Shown: positions 25,440 to 55,799 of the stretch, one piece after another
Position numbering within the stretch: position 1 is the stretch's first letter
Layout of the letters: every line of letters begins with the position of its first letter
Source: Koleobacter methoxysyntrophicus
Lineage (GTDB): Bacteria; Bacillota; Thermosediminibacteria; Koleobacterales; Koleobacteraceae
Direction: 5' to 3'
DNA: 64,000 bases
Assembly: GCF_017301615.1 (NCBI RefSeq)
Contig: NZ_CP059066.1
Span: 62,001 to 126,000 of the forward strand
Position numbers and translations under genes: made by a program
The notes under the pieces: generated by a model
Told to the model about the DNA's origin: nothing
Database searches by the model: none
What the model saw: the letters and a program-made list of their open reading frames with translations, nothing else

Positions 25440-25565
25440 TCTTTTAAAATTTATTTTACTCATAAATGTTTATCTTAATTGAAAAAATAATAAAAGTAGA
25501 GCAGGAATTTCAGATTGGATGTAGAATTAGTAATAATAATAATAATTTTTGTTGGAGGTGGTTTT

Positions 25566-25961
25566 GTGATTAACCTCAGAGAGTTGTATAAGTGCGAAAT
25601 ATGCGGCAATGTTGTCGAAGTTGTTTATGCCGGAGCCCCGGCCCTTGTTTGCTGCGGCCAAAAAATGAAAAAGTTGGAAGCTTTTACTGAAGATATCGGA
25701 AAGGAAAAACACGTACCGGTAGTTGAAACATCAGGTGATAGTATTAAAGTAAAAGTAGGCAGCATTGAGCACCCTATGGAAGAAAAGCATTACATAGCCT
25801 TTATTGAAGTTTTGACAGAAGATTGTATATTAAAGAAGGAATTAAAACCTGGAGAAAAACCTGAAGCACTGTTCCGGATTCAAAAAGGGGATGTTAAAGA
25901 AGTAAGGGAATACTGTAATATACACGGCTTATGGAAAAGTAAGAATAAAGGGGTAAGATAA
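25566..25961 (+). CDS. dfx: Desulfoferrodoxin (superoxide reductase, two-iron type)
   Basis: A 131-aa enzyme that reduces superoxide to hydrogen peroxide without making oxygen, typical of anaerobes. The N-terminal desulforedoxin centre is C10, C13, C29, C30. The catalytic centre II is E47-K48-H49, H69, H75, C117 and H120, matching the classical Dfx positions. GTG at 25566 is the start, 6 nt after GGAGGTGG; a longer open frame reading through an AAT-repeat tract is rejected. It leads a stress cluster with a small ACT-like protein and ferritin. Confidence 0.96.
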   Translation: MINLRELYKCEICGNVVEVVYAGAPALVCCGQKMKKLEAFTEDIGKEKHVPVVETSGDSIKVKVGSIEHPMEEKHYIAFIEVLTEDCILKKELKPGEKPEALFRIQKGDVKEVREYCNIHGLWKSKNKGVR

Positions 25962-25963
25962 GT

Positions 25964-26221
25964 ATGGGATGTTATAATGTAATGGCTGTTTTGGTCAATG
26001 AAAGGACGAGCAGCTCAAAAGAACTGCAGGACGTCCTGACTCGCTACGGCTGTATTATAAGTGTACGACTTGGGCTCCATAAGACAGGAAACGCCTGTTC
26101 GGAAGAAGGCCTTATCATCTTGCAGCTGTGTGGCAGTTTGGAGGAAATAAAGGCTCTTGAAGATAGTTTGAATTCTATAAAAGGCGTAAAAGCAAAAAGC
26201 ATTGAATTAAGTGCAGAATAA
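25964..26221 (+). CDS. Small ACT-like regulator (TM1266 / iron-only hydrogenase regulator type)
   Basis: An 85-aa protein of a predicted ferredoxin-like ACT fold: VMAVLVNERTSSSKELQDVL, then YGCIISVRLGLHKT and a C-terminal strand GVKAKSIEL. It resembles the TM1266-like proteins annotated as iron-only hydrogenase system putative regulators. It begins 2 nt after the dfx stop, so the two are cotranslated. Here there is no hydrogenase maturation gene nearby; the link is to superoxide reductase and ferritin instead. Confidence 0.7.
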   Translation: MGCYNVMAVLVNERTSSSKELQDVLTRYGCIISVRLGLHKTGNACSEEGLIILQLCGSLEEIKALEDSLNSIKGVKAKSIELSAE

Positions 26222-26291
26222 AATCCGCAAGTCTTATTACGAGTATAGGTTTTTTTAAAAAATATATTCATTTATATTGGGAGGGTTTGTA

Positions 26292-26804
26292 ATGATTAAA
26301 AAGTCCATCGAGGAAAAACTTAATGAGCAGATACAAAAAGAATTCTACTCTGCTTACCTGTATCTCGCAATGGAAGCCTACTTTTCATCGATAAACCTGG
26401 ATGGTTTTGCTAATTGGTTCCATGTTCAGGCACAGGAAGAATGTGACCATGCCATGTTGATTTTCAATTATATTAATAGGGTGGCCGGCAGGGTTAACTT
26501 AAGGCAGATTGATGAACCCCCTGCAGATTTCGGTTCTATTGAAGAAGTTCTGAAAGCCGCACTGGACCATGAACGTTTCGTTACTGGTTCAATCAATGAT
26601 ATACTTGAGCTGGCTAATTCTGAAAAAGACTATAAAACTGCAGCGTTTTTACAGTGGTTTGTTAATGAGCAGGTAGAGGAGGAGGAAAACGCCGAGAAAA
26701 ACCTGGCTGCCTTCCAATTTGTTAAAGATGACCCCAAGGGGATTTTACTTCTCGACAGAGAAATGGCAGCAAGGGTTTATACCCCGCCGTCTGCAGCAGA
26801 GTAA
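26292..26804 (+). CDS. ftnA: Ferritin (non-heme, bacterial FtnA type)
   Basis: A 170-aa iron-storage protein that forms a 24-mer and oxidises Fe(II). The ferroxidase residues of the four-helix bundle are visible: E17 (QKEFYSAYLY), E50 and H53 (AQEECDHAM), E94 (LDHERFV) and the EQVEEE segment near 127-132. GGGAGGG lies 7 nt before the ATG at 26292. It ends at a strong terminator. Storage of iron together with superoxide removal suits an anaerobe exposed to oxygen and iron. Confidence 0.95.
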   Translation: MIKKSIEEKLNEQIQKEFYSAYLYLAMEAYFSSINLDGFANWFHVQAQEECDHAMLIFNYINRVAGRVNLRQIDEPPADFGSIEEVLKAALDHERFVTGSINDILELANSEKDYKTAAFLQWFVNEQVEEEENAEKNLAAFQFVKDDPKGILLLDREMAARVYTPPSAAE

Positions 26805-26890: not shown

Positions 26891-27838
26891 TCATTTAGAT
26901 ATTGCCGATAATGCAATTGAAAACATATAAGCCATGTTAATCAGTACAAAATTTTTTATTGAAACGATAAAAGTATCCTTTTTGCTCTGTTCGTTCAAAA
27001 ATACCTGGATATTCTTCTTTACAGGTATGAACGTAAAGATTGTCAGCAATAATGTAACCGGTAAAATTCCTAATAAATACAGAATTACAAAATCAGCATA
27101 AATAACATAGTATAATGTCACAAAAAGCTTTAATGCCCTTTTTTTACCGATATAAATAGGTAACGTGTAGCGTTTATTTTCAATATCGTCCTGTATATCA
27201 CAGATGTTGTTAGCCAGCATAATATTTGCAATTCCGTTCATTGTTGGTATCGATATTAAGAAGACATAAAGGATTTCAGTAAGATTGAAACTGATGTTAA
27301 GTATATTATTATTATAAACCAGTGATAAGACGTTCCCATCATGTACATGTATATAAACTGATAGGAAGACTATTATTAGACCCATAAACAATCCTGAGAA
27401 TAATTCGCCAAAAGGCGTTCTTGAAATTGGTACAGGTCCAAAAGAATATAAAATACCGACTGAAAAGGATAATATACCAAGGATTAGGACAATAAAATTT
27501 GTATTTAAAAACAGTAAAATCCCAAACATAACAGCAATACATAAAAGTGTAATTATAACAATTATTACTGTTGACTCCTTCAAATTATCCCTTACAATAG
27601 CATTATGACTTTCATAATTATATCCATAGGTTTTCCTTGCGTTTTTATAATCAAAATAATTATTAATTGCAGTTGTAGCCATATCAATGGCCAACAACGA
27701 TATCAGCATAATAATAAAATTACTAAAATTAAATCTATTAAAATGGTAGTACGCATATAATGCCCCTAAAGCAAAAGGAATCATACTGGCAAGTTTTGTT
27801 TGAATCTCAACCAGTTTTAAAAAACTCTTTATCGACAA
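26891..27838 (-). CDS. dmkA: UbiA-family prenyltransferase (MenA/DmkA-like)
   Basis: A 315-aa integral membrane enzyme that would attach a polyprenyl chain to 1,4-dihydroxy-2-naphthoate, giving demethylmenaquinone. The two metal/diphosphate motifs are NNYFDYKNARKT and NNICDIQDDIENKRYTLP; eight to nine membrane helices are evident. The open frame extends to GTG 27925 and ATG 27919, but TTG at 27838 has AGAAGGGAG 9 nt upstream and yields the usual N-terminus FLKLVEIQTKLAS. It lies next to a polyprenyl synthase, as in the Listeria electron-transfer locus. Ordinary menaquinone synthesis is an alternative role. Confidence 0.85.
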   Translation of the reverse strand: MSIKSFLKLVEIQTKLASMIPFALGALYAYYHFNRFNFSNFIIMLISLLAIDMATTAINNYFDYKNARKTYGYNYESHNAIVRDNLKESTVIIVIITLLCIAVMFGILLFLNTNFIVLILGILSFSVGILYSFGPVPISRTPFGELFSGLFMGLIIVFLSVYIHVHDGNVLSLVYNNNILNISFNLTEILYVFLISIPTMNGIANIMLANNICDIQDDIENKRYTLPIYIGKKRALKLFVTLYYVIYADFVILYLLGILPVTLLLTIFTFIPVKKNIQVFLNEQSKKDTFIVSIKNFVLINMAYMFSIALSAISK

Positions 27839-27929
27839 TTTAAAATTCTCCCTTCTGAATTCCCAATAAACTTTTATTTCGAAACATCTTTCGAGATTTT
27901 TATTAAAAAAATTCTTCATTGTCACAATC

Positions 27930-28895
27930 TCAGTATTCTCTTTTTAAAAGCTTTTCTGCTATATCCATAAAAATAGACTTACTGTTATTATCCGGGAGTT
28001 TGGAAATATGGATAAAAGCCCTATTTGTGTACTTTTTTGCTGTAGCTTTCGCCTTACCTATGCAATTCAATTCTTTAACTATCTCAATGATTTTTAACAC
28101 ATTATCATCGCTATAATCTTTTTCTGACATTATTCTGAGTAGTTCTTTGTTGTCCATTTGTAAAGCATATATTAACGGTAAGGTAAAGATTCCCTGTCTC
28201 AAATCACTTCCAACTGGTTTTTTGACAGTATTCTGATCTCCTATATAGTCAAGAATATCGTCAATTATTTGGAATGCCATACCAATATTGTATCCGACCT
28301 TTGCCAACTGCTTGCTTAGTGTTTCATCACAGCCGCTTTCCGTTCCTCCTATATAACAGCTCAGCGAAAACAATGCAGCGGTTTTAGCAGCTATCCTCTT
28401 CAAATAATTTTTTACAGAAATATTAAAAGAATATCTTGATGAAAACTGCTCGATTTCTCCTGTACATATTCTAGATACAACTTTAGATACATTCCTAATA
28501 TTTGCAATACAAATATCATCAGATAAAAGATTAAAGCATCTGGCAAACAAAAAGTCTCCCATAAAAACAGCATAATCTTTGCCGTATTTGCTTTGAATAG
28601 TAATGTTGCCTCTCCTTAAACCGGCATCATCTACAATATCGTCATGGATTAAGGTAGCCATATGGATCATTTCTATAACAGCACCAAGGCGGCACAGTTT
28701 TTCACTATCATATCTGCCAAACTTTCCTGATAACAGAACAAAAGCCGGACGTATAAGTTTCCCGCCGGAATCAATCAAATTCAACAAAGCTGTTTCTATA
28801 GTTTTTTGACTACACCTCACGTTTTCTTTCATAATTCTTATTATTCTATAAAGTTCTTCCTTAATCTCGGGATATTCGTTCCAGAAGCTATCCAT
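27930..28895 (-). CDS. dmkB: Polyprenyl diphosphate synthase (DmkB/HepT-like)
   Basis: A 321-aa trans-isoprenyl diphosphate synthase that builds the quinone side chain. The first Asp-rich motif is HDDIVDD (D85, D86, D89, D90) and the second IIDDILDY (D212, D213, D216), with GGKLIRP for the allylic diphosphate. GAGGTGA lies 4-5 nt before the ATG. It precedes the prenyltransferase on the same strand. Chain length (hepta- or octaprenyl) cannot be read from the sequence. Confidence 0.9.
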   Translation of the reverse strand: MDSFWNEYPEIKEELYRIIRIMKENVRCSQKTIETALLNLIDSGGKLIRPAFVLLSGKFGRYDSEKLCRLGAVIEMIHMATLIHDDIVDDAGLRRGNITIQSKYGKDYAVFMGDFLFARCFNLLSDDICIANIRNVSKVVSRICTGEIEQFSSRYSFNISVKNYLKRIAAKTAALFSLSCYIGGTESGCDETLSKQLAKVGYNIGMAFQIIDDILDYIGDQNTVKKPVGSDLRQGIFTLPLIYALQMDNKELLRIMSEKDYSDDNVLKIIEIVKELNCIGKAKATAKKYTNRAFIHISKLPDNNSKSIFMDIAEKLLKREY

Positions 28896-28954
28896 TAAAT
28901 CACCTCTACAGTTATGAAAACAGCGTATGTTCTCAGAAACCCCACTCTTTTTAT

Positions 28955-30019
28955 TTATTTGGCGAAATCAGCGGTATCACATATACTAAAACTTCTATCG
29001 GTTAATTTAAAGGTTTCGTTTAGACCCGAAGTTAAATAGATTTTTGAATCATTTGTAATAAAAACTGCCTCAGTGTTATCTAACCCTTCTATTAAATTAA
29101 AACCCTTTTCAAGTCCCATTGCAAAAGCAGATGTGGATAATGAATCGGCATCTATGCCTTTATCGGCTATAACAGTAACGGATACCAAATTGTTTTCAAC
29201 GGGATACCCCGTTTCAGGGTCAAGTATATGATGATATATTTTGCCTTTTGCCTCAAAATATCTTTCATATATACCTGAAGTTACTACCTGTTTATTTATA
29301 ACATTAACAATTCCTACATAGTCACCCCTCGAAGAAAACGGGTTTTGAATTCCTATTCTCCATTCGCTACCATCAGGTTTACTGCCGTAAGCCAAAACAT
29401 TTCCGCCTAAATTTATTATTGCATGTTTTATGTTGTTTTCTTTTAAAATTTTTGCCACTTCATCGGCAGCATAACCCTTTGCAATTCCTCCTAAATCAAT
29501 GATCATCCCCGTTTTTTTAAGCATTATACTTTTTTTTTCAGAATTAAGAAGTACATCGTTATAATCTACCAAACTCTTTTTCTCTTCTATTTGCCGTCGG
29601 TCCGGAATTTCAGCTCCTTCTGTACCTATATTCCAAAGCTTTACTAAGGGCCCGATAGAGATATCAAACCTTCCTCCTGATAGCTCTGAAAAATATTTCC
29701 CTTTTTCTACAACATAAAAAGTATCATCAGAAACCTTTGTAAATTTTGTGCCGGCATTAGAATTTACCAGCATTATCTCGCTGTTCTTTTCATTTATTGT
29801 CATCTTATTTTCAATTTCCTTTAACCTGTTGAAAATTTCATCAAAAAGTTTATCAGAAGCTTTATCATAAATCTGTACCGTAATAATCGTCCCCAAAAGA
29901 AATCTATTTTGTGAAACAGGTTTATTATTTTCTTGATTTTGGCCGCAGGAAGATAGCACCAGCATTACAAACATCAGCAGAATAATCGATACGATGAAAC
30001 GATTTCTTAATCTTAGCAC
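28955..30019 (-). CDS. apbE: FAD:protein FMN transferase, lipoprotein (ApbE/FmnB-like)
   Basis: A 354-aa ApbE-family enzyme that attaches FMN to Thr or Ser of target proteins outside the membrane. The signal peptide ends in the lipobox LSSC (Cys25). Family motifs follow: GGIAKGYAADEVAKIL, INLGGNVLAYG, and DADSLSTSAFAMG near the C-terminus. The GTG start is preceded by GGAGGAGG. The obvious substrate is the FMN-binding lipoprotein encoded directly upstream. The Listeria counterpart is FmnB. Confidence 0.93.
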   Translation of the reverse strand: MLRLRNRFIVSIILLMFVMLVLSSCGQNQENNKPVSQNRFLLGTIITVQIYDKASDKLFDEIFNRLKEIENKMTINEKNSEIMLVNSNAGTKFTKVSDDTFYVVEKGKYFSELSGGRFDISIGPLVKLWNIGTEGAEIPDRRQIEEKKSLVDYNDVLLNSEKKSIMLKKTGMIIDLGGIAKGYAADEVAKILKENNIKHAIINLGGNVLAYGSKPDGSEWRIGIQNPFSSRGDYVGIVNVINKQVVTSGIYERYFEAKGKIYHHILDPETGYPVENNLVSVTVIADKGIDADSLSTSAFAMGLEKGFNLIEGLDNTEAVFITNDSKIYLTSGLNETFKLTDRSFSICDTADFAK

Positions 30020-30113
30020 TTTACCTCCTCCATTTGTTCAGAAAGTAGCTGCCGGCAAACAATCACATCAGCTGACACCCCTGGTAAAGCAAACCTACCT
30101 TTAAATATTAATT

Positions 30114-30173
30114 GCCCCCTAACAATTTTATTATATTTGTTAAGACTATAGGCGTCAAATTTTGTTAGGGGGC
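30114..30173 (-). terminator. 12-bp stem with long loop between FMN lipoprotein and apbE
   Basis: GCCCCCTAACAA (30114-30125) and its exact complement (30162-30173) enclose 36 nt. On the minus strand it is followed by AATTAATATTTAAAGG, not a clean T-run. It may act as a partial terminator or processing site that keeps apbE expression below that of the abundant lipoprotein. Confidence 0.5.
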
Positions 30174-30227
30174 TTTAATCGGAGATACCTCTAAATTTTT
30201 AATATTTAAATCATTCAAGAAATTTTA

Positions 30228-31106
30228 TTACTTGGCATCGGCCAGAGCCTTTTGAGCAAGTTCAAAAAATTCTTTTACATGTACCGATACACCGCTTATA
30301 GCGTCGGTGTGCCCTTCTTCATCCTTATAATCAATAGCGGTAGGGTCCTGAGTTTCTAGCAAATAAGCTTCGACTTTGGCTGCCTGCTCATGCCAAGGCG
30401 CCTTGGCACCACCCTGTTCAACCATGGGATATTGCCCGTTAATAGATAGGGTCTTCTTGTCATCCCCACCATCTCTGTGAACCGCATTCCAATTAGCTGC
30501 AACTATATAACCATTTATAACGGTTAAATCAACGGTATTTTTCCAACCCGTTTTTTCATCAAACTGGTTTTCCTCAGCATGATAATGACCGTCTTTATAT
30601 TTCCCTCTGCCAACAGGGCCTTTTTCTAAAGCCTTTTGAGCAAGCTCAAAAAATTCTTTTACATGTATCGTTACACCGCTTATAGCATCGGTGTGACCTT
30701 CTTCATCCTTATATTCAATAGCGGTAGGGTCCTGAGTTTCTAGTAAATAAGCTTCGACTTTGGCTGCCTGCTCATGCCAAGGCGCCTTGGCACCACCCTG
30801 TTCAACCATGGGATATTGCCCGTTAATAGATAGGGTCTTCTTGTCATCCCCACCATCTCTGTTAGCACCATTCCAGTCAGCTTTAACTATTTTACCGTCT
30901 TTTACTTCTATTGTAACCATATACTTCCAGCCAGTTTTTTCGTTAAAATTATCTTCTTGAGCAAAATATATTCCATCTTGATATTTGGTTTGTTGAGTTT
31001 TTTCTTTGCTGTCAGGCTGTTCTGGCGTATCAGGCTTACTCCCGCATCCAGCAAGCAATGAAATCAACACGACCATAATTATGCATAAGCTTAAAAACCT
31101 CTTCAT
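30228..31106 (-). CDS. pplA: Tandem FMN-binding lipoprotein (PplA-like, extracellular electron transfer)
   Basis: A 292-aa lipoprotein with lipobox LAGC (Cys21). After a short Pro/Lys-rich linker come two tandem domains of period 128 residues (about 42-160 and 170-288), each of the FMN-bind type. Each ends in an ApbE flavinylation motif: DAISGVT with T146, and DAISGVS with S274. The duplicated domains are nearly identical even at DNA level. ATG 31106 has AAAGGGGGAG upstream; the frame is open to 31223 but that part is A-rich leader. Listeria PplA has the same two-domain plan and carries electrons from membrane quinol to outside acceptors. Confidence 0.9.
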   Translation of the reverse strand: MKRFLSLCIIMVVLISLLAGCGSKPDTPEQPDSKEKTQQTKYQDGIYFAQEDNFNEKTGWKYMVTIEVKDGKIVKADWNGANRDGGDDKKTLSINGQYPMVEQGGAKAPWHEQAAKVEAYLLETQDPTAIEYKDEEGHTDAISGVTIHVKEFFELAQKALEKGPVGRGKYKDGHYHAEENQFDEKTGWKNTVDLTVINGYIVAANWNAVHRDGGDDKKTLSINGQYPMVEQGGAKAPWHEQAAKVEAYLLETQDPTAIDYKDEEGHTDAISGVSVHVKEFFELAQKALADAK

Positions 31107-31175
31107 CCGTAAAAGCTCCCCCTTTTTTGTTTTTTTACATTTTTTTTTGTTTTTTTTTACAAAACTTATATATAT

Positions 31176-31204
31176 ATGATATAATAAAACTTGGTCATTG
31201 TAAA
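31176..31204 (-). promoter_or_regulatory. Predicted promoter of the FMN lipoprotein transcript
   Basis: TTTACA (31204-31199), 17-nt spacer, TATCAT (31181-31176) on the minus strand. It is followed by an A-rich leader up to the ATG at 31106. Confidence 0.55.
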
Positions 31205-31241
31205 GTATGAATATATATTTCACGATTCAATAGGGAAAATA

Positions 31242-31340
31242 AATGTGGGGACAGAACAGCCCTTTGAGCGTGGGTAATCTGGTAGTATAAGCTACCTTGA
31301 CCACGAAGCCACCACCTCTATAGGTGGGCGGTAGTTCACT
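31242..31340 (+). mobile_element. Solo right end of an IS200/IS605-like (TnpB) element, omega-RNA-like
   Basis: The segment contains a series of short hairpins ending in GAAGCCACCACCTCTATAGG, TGGGCGGTAGTTCAC. The layout GAA, GC-rich hairpin with CTAT loop, GTTCAC resembles the right end of TnpB-bearing IS200/IS605 elements, where the 3' end of the omega RNA overlaps the transposon end. No tnpA or tnpB gene is in the window. It lies in the 5' leader of ndh2, ending about 40 nt before its ATG. The call is from pattern memory only. Confidence 0.45.
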
Positions 31341-31381
31341 AATCTAAGCTAATCTTAAAGGTCTTAAAGGGGGTATGAAGA

Positions 31382-33238
31382 ATGTCTAATGAAAAAAAAA
31401 TCGTAATCCTGGGGGCGGGCTATGGAGGTGTACATGCTGCCAAGCTGTTTCACAAAAAATTCAAAAAAAAGGATAACATTAAAATTACTCTCATAGACAA
31501 AAACCCATTCCATACGCTTATGACCGACTTACATGAAATTGCAGGTGCGAGGGTAGAAAAAGAAGCAGTTAAGGTGAACCTTAAAGGTATATTTGCAGGA
31601 AAAAAGGTTGAAGTGATAACAGATGAAATAAAAGATATTGATTTCAAAAAAAAGAAACTTATATCCGAGAACACAGTATATGAATATGATTATTTAGTAA
31701 TTGGAACAGGTGCGGAGCCTGCGTTTTTCGGTATCCCGGGTGCGGAAGAATACGGTCTTACTATATGGTCTCTGGAAGATGCTTTAAAGATCAGGAAGCA
31801 TATTGAAGGCATGTTTGATAAGGCATCCAGGGAAAAAAATCCGGAAAAAAGAAGAGAAATGCTGACCTTTGCGGTAGCCGGTGCCGGATTTACAGGAGTA
31901 GAAGTAATCGGAGAACTCGCCGAATGGAAGAAAAAGCTCTGCAGTATATACGGTATTGATAAAAATGAAGTAAGATTATTTATTATTGAAGCACTGCCGA
32001 ATATCCTTCCGATGCTGGAATCCGATTTGCAGGCCAAAGCCGCAAAACATATGAAAAAGATGGGGATTGAAGTTGTAACCAATACCCCTATAGTCGAAGT
32101 TAAAAAAGACGCCGTTGCTTTAAAGGATGGAACAGTTATTCCAACGAGAACCCTTATCTGGACAGCTGGTGTTCAGGGGAACAGCTTTGCTGCAAAATTA
32201 GGGTTAACAATCGGGAAGAAGAACAGGGTTCAGGCAAATAAATTCATGCAGTCGGTTGATTATTCCAATGTTTATCTAATCGGCGACAACGGGTATTTAG
32301 AAGAAGATGGAAAAACCGGATATCCCCAAATAGTTGAATCCGCTCTTCAAACTGCCGAAACAGCAGTTCATAATATAATTGCGGATATTGAGAATGCACC
32401 TAAAAAGCCTTTTAAACCCAATTATCACGGGTTTATGGTATCGATCGGCAGCAGATATGCTGTCGCTAATGTCGTAGGGATTAAGCTTTCGGGTTTCTTT
32501 GCTATGGCAGTCAAACACCTGGTTAATCTGCACTATTTATTCGGTGTAGGCGGATTTGCCTTATGCATTAAATATTTAATGCATGAGTTTTTCGATATTA
32601 AAGATAACCGTTCAATACTCGGCGGACATCTTTCAAATAAAATACCTATTTTATGGCTTCTCCCATTAAGGATTTTCGTCGGTTATAAGTGGCTGGGGCA
32701 AGGCATACAAAAGCTGCCCAAGATATTAGAAGACCCATCAAATATCTTTTTAATCCCTGCACCTGTTAAAGATGCCGTATCATCGGCTACCCAAGCTGCA
32801 GCAGATGCGGCAACCAGTGCAACACCTGCCGGAGAAAGCGCAGTGTCTCAATGGGGTCAAGCACTCCCTGTGCCGGGATTTATTGAAAAAATAGTCGATT
32901 GGTCAATGCAGACATTCTTCTATACCCCGGAAGGCGGTTTTACCGTTTGGGCGCAGGTTTTCCAGGCCGCAATGGTTATAGGAGAAATTGTAATCGGATT
33001 ATGCTTAATTGCAGGGCTGTTTACTACACTAGCTTCAATTGCATCAGTGGGTATGGGTCTTATGATTTGGGCTTCGGGTATGGCACCGTTGGAAATGCTC
33101 TGGTATTTAGCAGCGGGTATAGCCTTGATTGGCGGAGCCGGAAGGGCCTTCGGGTTAGATTATTATGTAATACCTGTTATTAAGGATTGGTGGAAGAAAA
33201 ACAAATTAGCTTATAAGACCTATTTATTTATAGAATAA
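31382..33238 (+). CDS. ndh2: Type II NADH dehydrogenase fused to a DoxX-like membrane domain (Ndh2)
   Basis: A 618-aa fusion. Residues 1 to about 400 are a pyridine nucleotide-disulfide oxidoreductase: FAD site GAGYGG (11-16), NADH site AGAGFTGVE (166-174) and the second FAD contact VYLIGDNG near 300. From about residue 425 a C-terminal membrane part follows (LRIFVGYKWLGQGIQKLPKIL and later helices GEIVIGLCLIAGLFTT), DoxX-like. It oxidises NADH and reduces membrane quinone without pumping ions. AAAGGGGGT lies upstream. It is divergent from the FMN lipoprotein. The same fusion type is the dedicated dehydrogenase of flavin-based electron export in Listeria. Confidence 0.9.
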   Translation: MSNEKKIVILGAGYGGVHAAKLFHKKFKKKDNIKITLIDKNPFHTLMTDLHEIAGARVEKEAVKVNLKGIFAGKKVEVITDEIKDIDFKKKKLISENTVYEYDYLVIGTGAEPAFFGIPGAEEYGLTIWSLEDALKIRKHIEGMFDKASREKNPEKRREMLTFAVAGAGFTGVEVIGELAEWKKKLCSIYGIDKNEVRLFIIEALPNILPMLESDLQAKAAKHMKKMGIEVVTNTPIVEVKKDAVALKDGTVIPTRTLIWTAGVQGNSFAAKLGLTIGKKNRVQANKFMQSVDYSNVYLIGDNGYLEEDGKTGYPQIVESALQTAETAVHNIIADIENAPKKPFKPNYHGFMVSIGSRYAVANVVGIKLSGFFAMAVKHLVNLHYLFGVGGFALCIKYLMHEFFDIKDNRSILGGHLSNKIPILWLLPLRIFVGYKWLGQGIQKLPKILEDPSNIFLIPAPVKDAVSSATQAAADAATSATPAGESAVSQWGQALPVPGFIEKIVDWSMQTFFYTPEGGFTVWAQVFQAAMVIGEIVIGLCLIAGLFTTLASIASVGMGLMIWASGMAPLEMLWYLAAGIALIGGAGRAFGLDYYVIPVIKDWWKKNKLAYKTYLFIE

Positions 33239-47505: not shown

Positions 47506-49272
47506 TCAACCCGCCTCTTTTAACACCGCTCTTATTATGTCATAATTCTCATCTTTTGCTTCTATAAATCCGTTTATATTGGTACCACTACCCATACCGT
47601 ATCCGCTTTGCTTGTATGTAAGGAAACCTTCTTTTATTCTTTCTACAACGTTTTGATCCATGCCAGGCCTCGCGGCTATGCAGTCCTTTGGAATTGGGTC
47701 GGTTTCGGCTAAACAAATCAGTGTTTCCACCTTAAGTCCTCTTTTTTGGGCTTCTTCCAGAGCCTCGGAGTACGTAGCTCCTGCATCCACAGTTCCATTA
47801 ATTACAGCTTCTACAACCCTGCTGTGGGTACCAAAGAAGACTTTTTCCAGGAGGTCACGGTCGGGGTCTATTCCTGACATTTTCAGAAGCATTCGCGGAT
47901 AAATATAACCTGATGCTGATTTAGGGTCAACAAAACCGACTCTTTTACCTCTTAGATCCTTAATCGATAAAATTTTTGAGCTTTTAGCGGCTATTATATA
48001 CCCTCGATAAAACGGGGCATTATTTACTACGGGTGTAACAATCTGAATGATGTCAGCCTTATTCTTTGCGTTTACATAAGCCAGCGGAGAAAACCAGCCG
48101 ATATCTACAATACCTTCTATAAGACAATCAGCCAGCGAATTGTAATCCGCAGCTATTAACACCCTAAAGGTATAACCCGCTTTTTCTCCAGCTGCACTGA
48201 TAACCGGCAAATACATCGCTTTGATTACATCAGGGCTTAGTGCCGGATTTATTCCAATAATTAATTCATCTTTTTTCTTCAACTTAAGCGTTTTTTTCTG
48301 AAGCGCATAAACATTTTCAGCAAGTTTTTCTGCAATTTTTAGCAAAAGCGCATTGTTGTTTCCCTGTTCCTTAATTAAATCCTCTACCTTCCCGGTGGAA
48401 TCAATATTAGACAATGTCTCTTTAGAAAGAGAAGAAATAATATTGCTGTGGGAGGTTGTCGCCTGGGTCTGCCGAGCAATGGATTTGAAAAGCATGTCGT
48501 TTAACCTTGCAATTTCTTCAAAGGCCCCAACCGATTCATCCATAGTGTTCATGCCTAGCTGGGTTTTTTGTCTAACATCTCTTAACCTGGCAGCGTTTTC
48601 TTTAAAAATTTGTTGGAGCTTGCCAATACCCTCGTTTATAAAAACCGCGGCTTCTTGGATTTCATAAGCCCTGGCGTTGCTCATTTCAGCCATCTTTCTT
48701 ATCTCTGATGCAACTACTCCAAAACCTCTCCCAGCCTGACCCGCTCTGGCAGCCTCGATAGCTGCATTTAAAGACAGTAATTGTGTTTGACGTGCAATTT
48801 CTTTTGTAAAATCAACAAAGTCTGCAATCTTTTCGATAAGTTCCTGAAGACCGTCCACATCTTCCGCCGAACCATCCATTTCTTCAGAAACTCTGGCGAT
48901 CAAATTCTGAACCTCGGCTATAGCCTGACTTCCCTGTCTTACTTTTTCCAAACTTTCCTTTGACATCTTTAAAACTTCGACAGCGTTTTCATTTATTACC
49001 GAAGCAAGTTTTGATAGGTCCTCAAGCTCTAAGCTGCCTGACTCGAGACTCGAACTGTTTTTCCTTAACTTTTTGTATATATCGTCAAAGATTTCTGCTA
49101 GCCTTTTTGCTTTTTCAGTATTTTTGCTGACTATCCAGTTTATTTCATGGGCGTTGTAACCCAGTTTCTCGCTTTCTGCGAGAATTTCTTCCATTTCCAA
49201 AAGATCACAATTGTTTTCCTTCCTGAGTTGTTCAGAACCCTCCTTTTTGAGAGAAGAAAAAATTCCCAGCAT
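47506..49272 (-). CDS. Soluble chemoreceptor signalling domain fused to PhnD-like binding domain
   Basis: A 588-aa fusion with no signal peptide and no membrane helix. Residues about 90-330 are a methyl-accepting coiled coil with the conserved hairpin tip [20 protein letters not shown] (near 165-184). From about 336 comes a phosphate/phosphite/phosphonate-binding (PhnD) domain: [53 protein letters not shown] 49272 has GGAGG 6 nt upstream; the open frame to 49302 lacks one. It lies directly after the sigma54 activator gene. It may sense a phosphorylated metabolite in the cytoplasm, such as glycerol phosphate, but the ligand is unknown. Confidence 0.85.
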
Positions 49273-49303
49273 GGTTTTCCTCCATTTTTTAAAACTATCC
49301 ATT

Positions 49304-51004: not shown

Positions 51005-51379
51005 TTATTTCCAGCTCCTGGTTGCCACCACGTTTACTCCGGTATCGGCCACATTAGGATAAACCACCTGACCGATTTTTACCGGTGCTTTGACCCTCAC
51101 GTGGCTTAATTCCTTCATGGCGTCAAAAATTAAAGCCTTCGGTAAAGGGCGCTCTGTCTTTACGGGCAGCAAGCGGTTGTCTTCCATACGCACCGTAGTA
51201 GTAAGTATCCTCATTGGATTGATCACTTCAGTTTTGGCGTAGTCGGTACCCTTCCTGCACATATTGCCGCTGATTCCAGCTATTTTACCTCCTTTTAATA
51301 CTACTCTTACCACGCATCCACTGGGACACACTATACACGTAACTGTCTTCTCCTCAATTGCCGTGCTCAACTCTACCAC
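51005..51379 (-). CDS. DUF1667 protein, GlpC-like small Fe-S subunit of the G3P dehydrogenase cluster
   Basis: A 124-aa protein with four cysteines near the N-terminus: CIVCPSGC (C15, C18, C22) and C41 in GNMCRKG, a likely iron-sulfur site. The C-terminal VKIGQVVYPNVADTGVNVVATR is typical of DUF1667. It overlaps the end of the upstream FAD oxidoreductase gene by about 26 nt. The trio of GlpA-like, FAD oxidoreductase and DUF1667 genes is common beside glycerol genes in Clostridia and Thermotogae. AGGAGG lies close to the GTG start. Confidence 0.88.
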   Translation of the reverse strand: MVELSTAIEEKTVTCIVCPSGCVVRVVLKGGKIAGISGNMCRKGTDYAKTEVINPMRILTTTVRMEDNRLLPVKTERPLPKALIFDAMKELSHVRVKAPVKIGQVVYPNVADTGVNVVATRSWK

Positions 51380-52631
51380 CTTCCTCCTGAAGTCTGAATT
51401 TTATTATTTCGCTCCCTATCATTTCATCGCGGCTCACTTGGATGCTTATCATCTCACTGGGCCTGACATGCCTCAATGTCCTTGATTTTATTACGCCCCA
51501 TTCCGACTCTATGAAGAGCTCAGCCTTCGCCATGGGCCTGACACTTCGCATGAAGAAGTTCACTTTTCCCTCCAGTACAGCATCCACGTTTATCCTCTGG
51601 GGAAGCACGTACCTAAGGTTATCCCCTGTGACAACGGGTATGTGCTCGTATTTTTTGCTTCCGCTGGCAAGGTACAAAGCTGCTCCCCTTGCAGCCAGCA
51701 CGGCCTCCTGAGTGACATAATCTACCAGATCGTGAACGTGCAGCACGTTTCCGCAAGCGAAAATGCCGGGGAGTGATGTCTCCAGTCGCTGATTTACCAC
51801 AGGCCCTCCGGTGACTTCGTCGATTTCGATATTTGTCATCCTGGAAAGCTCGTTTTCCGGTATCAGACCTACGGATAACAGGAGCGTATCGCAGGACACA
51901 AATCTTGCAGTTTCCATAACCGGCTTCATGTCGTCGTCGACCTCAGCGATAGTAACCCCTTCGACCCTTTTCCTACCGTGAATATTCACAACCGTGTGCT
52001 TTAAGAGCAAGGGTATATCGTAATCCTCCAGGCACTGCACGACATTCCTTATAAGGCCGTTGGAGTAAGGCATTATCTCTACAACACATTGAACCTCGGC
52101 TCCCTCCAGAGTAAGACGCCTTGCCATTATCAATCCTATGTCTCCGGAACCCAGGATCACTATTTTTCGCCCCGGCATATAGCCTTCGATATTTACAAAC
52201 CGCTGGGCGGTTCCTGCAGTGAAAACGCCGGCCGGCCTGAAACCGGGTATGTTGATAGCACCCCTGGTCCTCTCCCTGCAACCCATAGCCAGGATGACCG
52301 TCTTTGCCTTTATTTCTACCAGCCCTTCCCGGCTGTTTATCGCTACTAAGCGCCGGTCTGCCGTTAGTTCCAGCACCATCGTGTCGAGCATTATTTCTAC
52401 ACCCAGTCTTTCCGCTTCTTCTATGAAGCGCTCCGCGTACTCGGGACCGGTAAGTTCCTCATTGAAGATATGCAACCCGAATCCGGTGTGAATGCACTGC
52501 TTTAATATCCCGCCCGGTTCCGACTCCCTGTCGATTACCAGCACATCCTTAATACCCAGCTTGCGGGCTTCCACGGCGGCTGACAACCCTGCAGGTCCCC
52601 CACCGATTATTACAAGCTCCCTATTTTGCAC
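51354..52631 (-). CDS. FAD/NAD-dependent oxidoreductase of the glycerol-3-phosphate dehydrogenase cluster
   Basis: A 425-aa flavoprotein. FAD site VIIGGGPAGLSAA at the N-terminus, second dinucleotide site VILGSGDIGLIMARR near residue 165-180, and the late GIFACGNVLHVHD contact. It contains the CRERTRG motif seen in this subfamily. It probably passes electrons from the GlpA-like subunit to NAD or another carrier. Start is uncertain among TTG 52652, GTG 52643, 52640 and 52631; all overlap the end of the upstream gene, which implies translational coupling. Confidence 0.9.
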   Translation of the reverse strand: MQNRELVIIGGGPAGLSAAVEARKLGIKDVLVIDRESEPGGILKQCIHTGFGLHIFNEELTGPEYAERFIEEAERLGVEIMLDTMVLELTADRRLVAINSREGLVEIKAKTVILAMGCRERTRGAINIPGFRPAGVFTAGTAQRFVNIEGYMPGRKIVILGSGDIGLIMARRLTLEGAEVQCVVEIMPYSNGLIRNVVQCLEDYDIPLLLKHTVVNIHGRKRVEGVTIAEVDDDMKPVMETARFVSCDTLLLSVGLIPENELSRMTNIEIDEVTGGPVVNQRLETSLPGIFACGNVLHVHDLVDYVTQEAVLAARGAALYLASGSKKYEHIPVVTGDNLRYVLPQRINVDAVLEGKVNFFMRSVRPMAKAELFIESEWGVIKSRTLRHVRPSEMISIQVSRDEMIGSEIIKFRLQEEGGRVEHGN

Positions 52632-54090
52632 TTTTGACACCACCAGTCTCAATAAATTCTTTCGTTCTTCCTTTCAACATCTCGGAACCGCTGCCGCATT
52701 TTGTCACTTCCAGAGGGTCTATGCCGAGTTCTCTGGCTAGGATTGCCATCACCCTGGGCGAACAAAAACCCCCCTGACACCTACCCATTCCGGCCCTGGT
52801 GCGGCGCTTTACGGCGTCCAAACTACGGGCACCCAGCGGCCTTCTAATTGCATCAATTATTTCTCCTTCGGTCACCGTCTCGCACCGACAGACTACTCGG
52901 CCATAGACCGGATCCCGCCTTATAAGCTCTTTTTTTTCTTCGTTGTTGAAAAGACGGAATTTATTAATTTGGGGTCTTCCTGGATTATAGTTGCTCTTTT
53001 CTTTAAGCTCTAACCCTTCTTCCTTCAAAATATCAACGACCATTTCGGTGATGGCGGGTGCAGCGGAGAGCCCCGGCGATTGGATGCCTCCGATATTGAT
53101 AAATCCCCTGACTTTCTTCGATGCCCCTATGACAAAGTCATTGGTATTCGACACGGCTCTCAACCCGGCGAACGAGGCAATAACGTGCATCAGGGGCAAC
53201 CTGGGGATAAGTTTGCGAGCTCCCCTTACGATCTCCTCGATCCCCTGCAGGGTCACGCTGACGTCATCTTTTTCCCGAACATCATTGGAATTCGGGCCGA
53301 TGAAAAAGTTACCGTCAACCGTAGGGCATACAAGAATACCCTTGGATATCTTTGTAGGTGAAGGGAATATTACCCTGTTAACGATGTCTCCGAACCTCCT
53401 GTCGAAGATCAGATATTCACCTTTGCGCGGTGTTATACTGTAGTCTTCCGCCCCTGCCATTCTGGATATCTCGTCAGCGAAAAGGCCCGCTGCGTTGATA
53501 ACATACCGTGTGTGAATAATTTCTCCCGGGGTCTCAACGGACAGCCCCCCTCCACTTTCCGCACGTATTCCAATGACTGGGGAATTCAATTTTATATCTA
53601 CTCCGTTCAGGCAGGCATTTTCCGCCAACGCGATCGTAAGTTCGTAGGGGCAGATAATTCCTGCCGTTGGAGCATAAAGTGCCGCCCGTGACTCACTGGT
53701 GATATTAGGCTCCATTTCCAGCAGCTTTTCCCTATTTATAATTTCGAGGTTGGGAACACCGTTATTCTTCCCCCTCTCCATCAATTCTTCCAGCACATTG
53801 ACCTCCTCTTCGTTTAATGCCACCACCAGGGAACCTATCCTTTTAAATGGTACATCAAGCTCTCTGCAAATTTCATCATAAAGAGGGTTCCCCTGCACAT
53901 TCAGTTTGGCTTTCAAGGTGCCGGGTTTTGCATCGTAGCCGGCGTGAATAACGGCGCTATTGGCTTTGCTGGTGCCGCTCGCCACATCATCTTCCTTTTC
54001 AACCAGTACCACCTTTAATTGGTACCTGGAAAGTTTGCGGGCGATCATGCACCCCACCACACCCCCGCCTACTATTGCTACATCTATCAC
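52621..54090 (-). CDS. glpA: Glycerol-3-phosphate dehydrogenase, GlpA-like with BFD [2Fe-2S] domain
   Basis: A 489-aa protein. The N-terminal DAO domain begins VAIVGGGVVGCMIARKLSRY and oxidises glycerol-3-phosphate to DHAP. The C-terminal BFD-like domain carries cysteines CRCET and RCQGGFC for a [2Fe-2S] cluster. GTG start with AAGGAGG 8 nt upstream. The ribosome site lies inside the T-rich tail of a terminator hairpin, so expression probably needs antitermination. Length and domain plan fit the anaerobic GlpA type of Clostridia. Confidence 0.92.
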   Translation of the reverse strand: MIDVAIVGGGVVGCMIARKLSRYQLKVVLVEKEDDVASGTSKANSAVIHAGYDAKPGTLKAKLNVQGNPLYDEICRELDVPFKRIGSLVVALNEEEVNVLEELMERGKNNGVPNLEIINREKLLEMEPNITSESRAALYAPTAGIICPYELTIALAENACLNGVDIKLNSPVIGIRAESGGGLSVETPGEIIHTRYVINAAGLFADEISRMAGAEDYSITPRKGEYLIFDRRFGDIVNRVIFPSPTKISKGILVCPTVDGNFFIGPNSNDVREKDDVSVTLQGIEEIVRGARKLIPRLPLMHVIASFAGLRAVSNTNDFVIGASKKVRGFINIGGIQSPGLSAAPAITEMVVDILKEEGLELKEKSNYNPGRPQINKFRLFNNEEKKELIRRDPVYGRVVCRCETVTEGEIIDAIRRPLGARSLDAVKRRTRAGMGRCQGGFCSPRVMAILARELGIDPLEVTKCGSGSEMLKGRTKEFIETGGVKSAK

Positions 54091-54103
54091 TTTGATGACC
54101 TCC

Positions 54104-54144
54104 TTAAAAAAGTAAAGAGAACCACCCCTAAAGGTGTGGTTCTC
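54104..54144 (-). terminator. Leader terminator before glpA, candidate GlpP target
   Basis: GAGAACCAC / GTGGTTCTC (54117-54125 with 54136-54144) and an inner CC/GG pair, followed on the minus strand by TTTACTTTTTT. It lies between the glpK stop (54282) and the glpA start (54090), as the glpD leader terminator does in Bacillus. Readthrough would need the GlpP antiterminator encoded upstream. Confidence 0.8.
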
Positions 54145-54281
54145 CTCTTCTCCACCACAACTTTTTCAAATGCCCTTTTTAAAAATAATACTATAGCATA
54201 TTCTTTTATATATTATAATTATATTCCTCAATTTTATTATTATACTTCTTCCACAAATTCCGTTATTCTTTCTCCCATCCG

Positions 54282-55799
<1,518 letters not shown>

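What the first reader, a model, noticed from the sequence alone, without database searches (positions are those of the whole stretch)
26891..33238. Flavin-based extracellular electron transfer locus lacking EetA/EetB
Side by side lie a DoxX-fused NDH-2, a lipoprotein with two FMN-attachment domains, an ApbE lipoprotein, and a dedicated DHNA-prenyltransferase plus polyprenyl synthase. This is the Ndh2-PplA-FmnB-DmkB-DmkA set of Listeria. EetA, EetB and flavin transport genes are absent here, so this is a reduced or split version, possibly for Fe(III) reduction. A Dfx-ferritin cluster lies next to it.
Basis: partly seen in the sequence, partly recalled or inferred. Interest (0 to 1): 0.7.

Follow-up and report, generated by a model that had tools for sequence, protein, structure and literature searches.

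The report
Split electron-export locus lacking quinone-head genes
This anaerobe carries the known Listeria-type gene set for passing electrons out of the cell; the two genes reported missing sit elsewhere in its genome beside the Rnf ion pump, and it seems unable to make the quinone head the chain needs, so it probably takes that from its neighbours.

Summary
Divergent from ndh2 (31382-33238 +, DoxD/DoxX-like C-terminus) lie pplA (lipoprotein with two FMN-attachment domains; better start at 31106), an ApbE whose nearest solved relative is Listeria FmnB, a polyprenyl synthase (dmkB) and a DHNA prenyltransferase (dmkA). [quoted passage not shown] "Lacking EetA/EetB" is true only of the window: both are encoded 1.9 Mb away, directly after rnfCDGEAB, an arrangement already reported as common.

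(1) The locus holds the genome's only ApbE, so that enzyme must also serve RnfG. (2) The locus holds the genome's only UbiA-family prenyltransferase. (3) MenB and MqnA/D are absent and MenD has only sub-cut-off matches in this single-contig genome; 15 PplA-bearing relatives of the same class also lack MenB over cut-off and true MqnA/D. The quinone head is therefore probably scavenged, as in Lactiplantibacillus plantarum. E. coli CydA, FrdB and NuoH queries found nothing. The Dfx-ferritin neighbourhood is not conserved in the closest relative. New variant of a known kind; electron transfer itself is untested.

The parts
26891..27925 (-). dmkA: 1,4-dihydroxy-2-naphthoate polyprenyltransferase; the only UbiA-family protein of the genome
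   Evidence: uniqueness; 77% identical to the UBA3567 orthologue
27930..28895 (-). dmkB: long-chain polyprenyl diphosphate synthase (HepT-like)
28955..30019 (-). apbE/fmnB: lipoprotein FAD:protein FMN transferase; the only ApbE of the genome
   Evidence: best solved relative 7ESA set (325 bits, next 193)
30090..30200 (-). long GC-rich hairpin (GCCCCCTAACAA...TTGTTAGGGGGC) between pplA and apbE; possible mRNA stabiliser or attenuator
   Evidence: z = -2.6, 2 of 200 shuffles as stable
30228..31106 (-). pplA: lipoprotein with two FMN_bind domains, motifs DAISGVT and DAISGVS; start revised from 31223 to 31106
31240..31339 (+). about 100-bp insert in the ndh2/pplA intergenic region, absent from the closest relative; resembles the right end of an IS200/IS605 element (resemblance from memory)
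   Evidence: no Rfam match
31382..33238 (+). ndh2: type II NADH dehydrogenase with a C-terminal membrane domain similar to DoxD/DoxX

Best explanation
A FLEET-type electron export chain. Ndh2 oxidises cytosolic NADH and reduces a naphthoquinone in the membrane (inferred). DmkB makes the polyprenyl tail and DmkA joins it to a scavenged DHNA-type head group, giving demethylmenaquinone (inferred from families plus missing head-group pathways). The quinol, perhaps through the DoxX-like part of Ndh2, reduces the FMN groups on PplA at the outer membrane face, and these pass electrons to Fe(III), flavins or other acceptors (inferred by homology). FAD for the FMN groups is exported by EetB (with EetA), encoded next to the rnf genes, and attached by the single ApbE of this locus, which must also flavinylate RnfG. 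Shown: gene content, single-copy status of ApbE, EetB and UbiA, absence of MenB and MqnA/D, no MenD over cut-off. Inferred: every electron-transfer step and the scavenging.
For: Gene set and families; ApbE closest to the 7ESA flavin transferase, the FmnB structure set, by a wide margin; conserved block in relatives, with EetA and EetB inside the cluster in Fervidicella and a Clostridia MAG and EetA inside it in Petromonas; EetA/EetB after rnfB in this genome and in UBA3567; one ApbE, one EetB, one UbiA; no MenB, MenD only below cut-off at ThDP-enzyme level, no MqnA/D; no match to E. coli CydA, FrdB or NuoH, the only FrdA-like match being NadB. Published: eetB most often colocalises with Rnf and EET systems and EetB is the flavin-export ECF-S subunit (PMC9973259); L. 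plantarum does this with exogenous DHNA (PMC9888254; PMC10746273).
Against: The FMN motifs read SGVT/SGVS, not the usual SGAT/S; the valine is conserved in the nearer relatives, but flavinylation of such a site has not been shown. PplA scores well below NCBI's PplA cut-off. In L. plantarum dmkA and dmkB were dispensable for DHNA-driven current, so the role of the prenylation genes may be minor. No importer for DHNA was identified in this genome. FmnA and EcfA/EcfA' were not searched.
Confidence: 0.72

Rival explanations
1. The locus serves a quinone-linked respiratory chain inside the membrane, with PplA as an electron carrier on the outer face to an unidentified oxidoreductase rather than to an outside acceptor.
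For: Flavinylated FMN_bind proteins feed many extracytosolic enzymes (PMC8238504). The window also has a glycerol-3-phosphate dehydrogenase-like pair (51354-54090; DAO+BFD and Pyr_redox_2) that could donate to quinone.
Against: No match to E. coli CydA, FrdB or NuoH in the genome; no terminal reductase gene in or beside the conserved block.
Confidence: 0.15
2. The quinone head group is made internally by an unrecognised or very divergent pathway, so the organism is not dependent on neighbours.
For: Absence by profile search cannot exclude non-homologous enzymes; DmkA is intact and conserved.
Against: MenB and MqnA/D lack matches in a single-contig, 100% complete genome and MenD has only sub-cut-off ones, while the same MenB and MqnA/D searches find these genes in other genomes of the phylum. 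No MenB over cut-off or true MqnA/D in 15 further PplA-bearing genomes of the class.
Confidence: 0.12
3. DmkA and DmkB act on another aromatic acceptor, or the locus reduces flavins or iron for assimilation or for peroxide and superoxide defence (desulfoferrodoxin and ferritin lie next door).
For: Dfx, a TM1266-like regulator and ferritin lie at 25515-26804.
Against: DmkA exceeds curated cut-offs for DHNA polyprenyltransferases. The Dfx-ferritin group is convergent and is not next to the block in UBA3567.
Confidence: 0.08

Closest known systems
Listeria monocytogenes FLEET locus (Ndh2, PplA, FmnA, FmnB, EetA, EetB, DmkA, DmkB)
   Same: Same five protein types; ApbE closest to the 7ESA flavin transferase structures (one search lists the FmnB structure paper, PMC8906456); two-domain FMN lipoprotein.
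   Different: EetA/EetB lie beside the rnf genes; one ApbE serves both systems; DmkA is the only prenyltransferase; no DHNA pathway found; FMN motifs have V for A; FmnA not tested.
Lactiplantibacillus plantarum FLEET, driven by exogenous DHNA (PMC9888254, PMC10746273)
   Same: Ndh2, PplA, DmkA/DmkB; quinone head taken from the environment.
   Different: Here the genome also has Rnf and the locus is split. In L. plantarum dmkA and dmkB are dispensable for DHNA-driven current.
Fervidicella metallireducens FLEET-like cluster (L060)
   Same: PplA (71% identical over one part), ApbE, Ndh2 and DmkB in one cluster.
   Different: EetA and EetB are inside the cluster; no dmkA was matched within the fetched stretch.
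Clusters of more distant genomes of the same class (e.g. L050, L055)
   Same: PplA, DmkA-like UbiA, DmkB and Ndh2 together, without EetAB; no MenB over cut-off and no MqnA/D.
   Different: No ApbE in the cluster; in four genomes MqnP, UbiD, UbiX and an ABC importer lie beside it.

Membership tests
FLEET (flavin-based extracellular electron transfer) locus | Type II NADH dehydrogenase with C-terminal membrane domain | tested here: met
   NDH-2 domain; DoxD 23.3 bits, over cut-off; helices in a low-confidence model
FLEET (flavin-based extracellular electron transfer) locus | PplA-type lipoprotein with FMN_bind domains | tested here: met
   Lipobox and two FMN_bind repeats; NCBI PplA model matched below cut-off (58.6 of 325 bits)
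FLEET (flavin-based extracellular electron transfer) locus | Dxx[ST]GA[ST] flavinylation motifs | tested here: inconclusive
   DAISGVT and DAISGVS: acceptor Thr/Ser present, Ala replaced by Val, conserved in close relatives
FLEET (flavin-based extracellular electron transfer) locus | ApbE/FmnB flavin transferase | tested here: met
FLEET (flavin-based extracellular electron transfer) locus | DmkA and DmkB | tested here: met
FLEET (flavin-based extracellular electron transfer) locus | EetA and EetB within the locus | tested here: not met
   Not in the window; present once in the genome after rnfB. Related clusters vary in this respect, so this is treated as a variant, not an exclusion
FLEET (flavin-based extracellular electron transfer) locus | FmnA (ECF-T) and EcfA/EcfA' for FAD export | not tested
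FLEET (flavin-based extracellular electron transfer) locus | Reduction of an extracellular acceptor | not testable with these tools
   Needs an assay
DHNA auxotrophy (quinone head scavenging) | Prenyltransferase present, DHNA synthesis absent | tested here: met
   MenC, MenE, MenF and the radical-SAM futalosine enzymes were not searched

The most novel reading that the evidence does not exclude
A whole class of anaerobes (this genome and its PplA-bearing relatives) runs extracellular electron transfer on quinone heads taken from other microbes. In some relatives a dedicated import-and-finish module (NMT1-type ABC importer, MqnP, UbiD, UbiX) sits beside the electron-export genes, which would make it a naphthoate salvage system. 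In the window's own genome the only such link left is DmkA.
Probability: 0.25. Interest if true: 0.62.

Novelty: new variant of a known kind. Interest (0 to 1): 0.38.

Why it matters
It shows that two flavin-dependent systems, the Rnf ion pump and extracellular electron export, can share one flavin-attachment enzyme and one flavin exporter divided over two loci. It also runs counter to a published generalisation that pplA(cad)-apbE pairs occur only in genomes without rnf (PMC7074142). If the quinone head is indeed scavenged, electron export in this lineage depends on neighbours, a cross-feeding link so far shown in lactic acid bacteria and directly testable with added DHNA.

Tried and rejected
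EetAB 'absent': rejected. A weak MqnA/D match in UBA3567 (41.7 bits) proved to be an ABC-importer-type binding lipoprotein. MenD-like matches in the genome are 55-71 bits against a cut-off of 244 and are read as ordinary ThDP enzymes. A fumarate reductase-like match is NadB in a nadABC cluster. Rfam found no riboswitch or other RNA near the locus. The Ndh2 structure model was too uncertain in its C-terminal part (pLDDT about 30-70) to compare folds, so no fold search was made. Naming the organism from papers gave nothing.

Full report
What is there. The window lies at G000:C1:62001-126000 of a 3,102,782-base single-contig genome rated 100% complete. The block runs dmkA-dmkB-apbE-pplA on the minus strand (26891-31106) and ndh2 on the plus strand (31382-33238). 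Pfam and NCBIfam name them as a UbiA-family DHNA polyprenyltransferase (over two curated cut-offs), a HepT-like polyprenyl synthase, ApbE, FMN_bind and a type II NADH dehydrogenase. The C-terminal part of Ndh2 matches DoxD just over its cut-off and DoxX just under. ApbE's best solved relative is the 7ESA flavin transferase set at 325 bits, with the next at 193; that 7ESA is Listeria FmnB is my reading of that set together with the FmnB structure paper listed. PplA's first FMN domain is strongly similar to the solved single-domain protein 2KZX.

PplA details. The ORF caller's GTG start is too early; an ATG at 31106 follows a strong ribosome-binding site, gives a standard lipoprotein signal (LLAGC) and equals the length of the UBA3567 orthologue. 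The two attachment motifs are DAISGVT and DAISGVS. The usual motif has Ala before the acceptor; Val is shared by most of the nearer relatives, while the more distant class relatives and Petroclostridium have Ala. Flavinylation is therefore likely but not certain.

Conservation. The same block is found in UBA3567 (77-90% protein identity). PplA relatives with varying neighbours occur in Petromonas, Fervidicella, a Clostridia MAG, a Spirochaetales MAG, Tissierellales and Tepidibacter. In Fervidicella EetA, EetB, Ndh2, ApbE, PplA and DmkB lie together; in the Clostridia MAG PplA, ApbE, EetA and EetB do. So the window's block belongs to the FLEET family of loci, with EetAB separated.

EetA and EetB are not missing. 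The genome has one NusG_II protein (EetA, C1:1986643-1987038) and one PF07456 protein (EetB, 1987116-1987649), directly after rnfCDGEAB and before maf and radC. The order EetA-EetB-maf-radC is kept in nearly all genomes of the class examined, with or without rnf alongside, so this looks like an old position. The literature already reports that eetB most often colocalises with Rnf and EET systems, and that EetB is the substrate subunit of a flavin exporter (PMC9973259).

Shared flavinylation. The genome has four FMN_bind places: RnfG, PplA and two smaller proteins, but only one ApbE, the one in this block. It follows that this ApbE must serve RnfG as well, if RnfG is flavinylated as usual. [quoted passage not shown] this genome and UBA3567 do not fit that rule.

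Quinone supply. DmkA is the only UbiA-family protein of the genome, unlike Listeria, where (from general knowledge) DmkA is a second copy beside MenA. MenB has no match at all and MqnA/D none; MenD has only sub-cut-off matches at the level of other ThDP enzymes. Across 61 genomes, MenB over cut-off was found in three and true MqnA/D in a number of others, all outside the class. In the class, 15 other genomes have a clear PplA (E below 1e-18), and none has MenB over cut-off or a true MqnA/D; the one weak MqnA/D-like match is an importer-type lipoprotein. Most of these genomes nevertheless carry UbiA prenyltransferases. The simplest reading is that the head group is scavenged. L. plantarum does this with DHNA (PMC9888254, PMC10746273), although there dmkA and dmkB are dispensable for current. 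MenC, MenE, MenF and the radical-SAM futalosine enzymes were not searched.

Other users of quinone. A joined query of E. coli CydA, FrdB, FrdA and NuoH found only NadB. This argues against an oxygen, fumarate or complex I chain of those types but does not cover all reductases; distant homologues could be missed.

Mechanism. NADH to Ndh2 to (demethyl)menaquinone to PplA-FMN to an outside acceptor, by homology with Listeria. Gene content and copy numbers are shown; electron flow, acceptor and scavenging are inferred. The Dfx-ferritin group is convergent with dmkA and absent from that position in UBA3567, so it is not counted as part of the system.

Verdict. A new variant of a known kind: a FLEET locus split from its flavin exporter, sharing ApbE with Rnf, in a probable quinone-head auxotroph.

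Noticed in passing
L055:588-6010 and matching stretches in L044, L046, L049: In four relatives the PplA-DmkA-DmkB-Ndh2 group lies beside menaquinone decarboxylase (TIGR03701, 678 bits, over cut-off), an MqnP-like prenyltransferase, UbiX and an NMT1-type ABC importer, while MqnA/D are absent from those genomes: a possible naphthoate salvage module.
   Followed up: partly
window 30228-31000: The second two thirds of the two FMN domains of PplA are about 97% identical in DNA while the first 120 bases are about 65%, which suggests recent gene conversion around the FMN sites; weaker in UBA3567.
   Followed up: partly
window 31240-31339: About 100-bp insert between ndh2 and pplA, absent in UBA3567, with two hairpins and the end GGTAGTTCAC; looks like a solo IS200/IS605 right end or orphan omega-RNA-like remnant. 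No Rfam match.
   Followed up: partly
window 30090-30200: 12-bp perfect GC-rich stem between pplA and apbE, more stable than shuffles (z = -2.6).
   Followed up: no
window 47506-49302: A protein that joins a chemotaxis signalling domain to a phosphonate-type substrate-binding domain, next to a sigma-54 activator carrying an HPr domain and a Dak1 protein.
   Followed up: no
L062:7977-9422: In Tepidibacter thalassicus a PplA-type FMN domain is fused to ApbE in one 481-aa protein.
   Followed up: no
window 51354-55784: Glycerol kinase with a glycerol-3-phosphate dehydrogenase-like pair (DAO+BFD, Pyr_redox_2); a possible second donor to the quinone pool.
   Followed up: no
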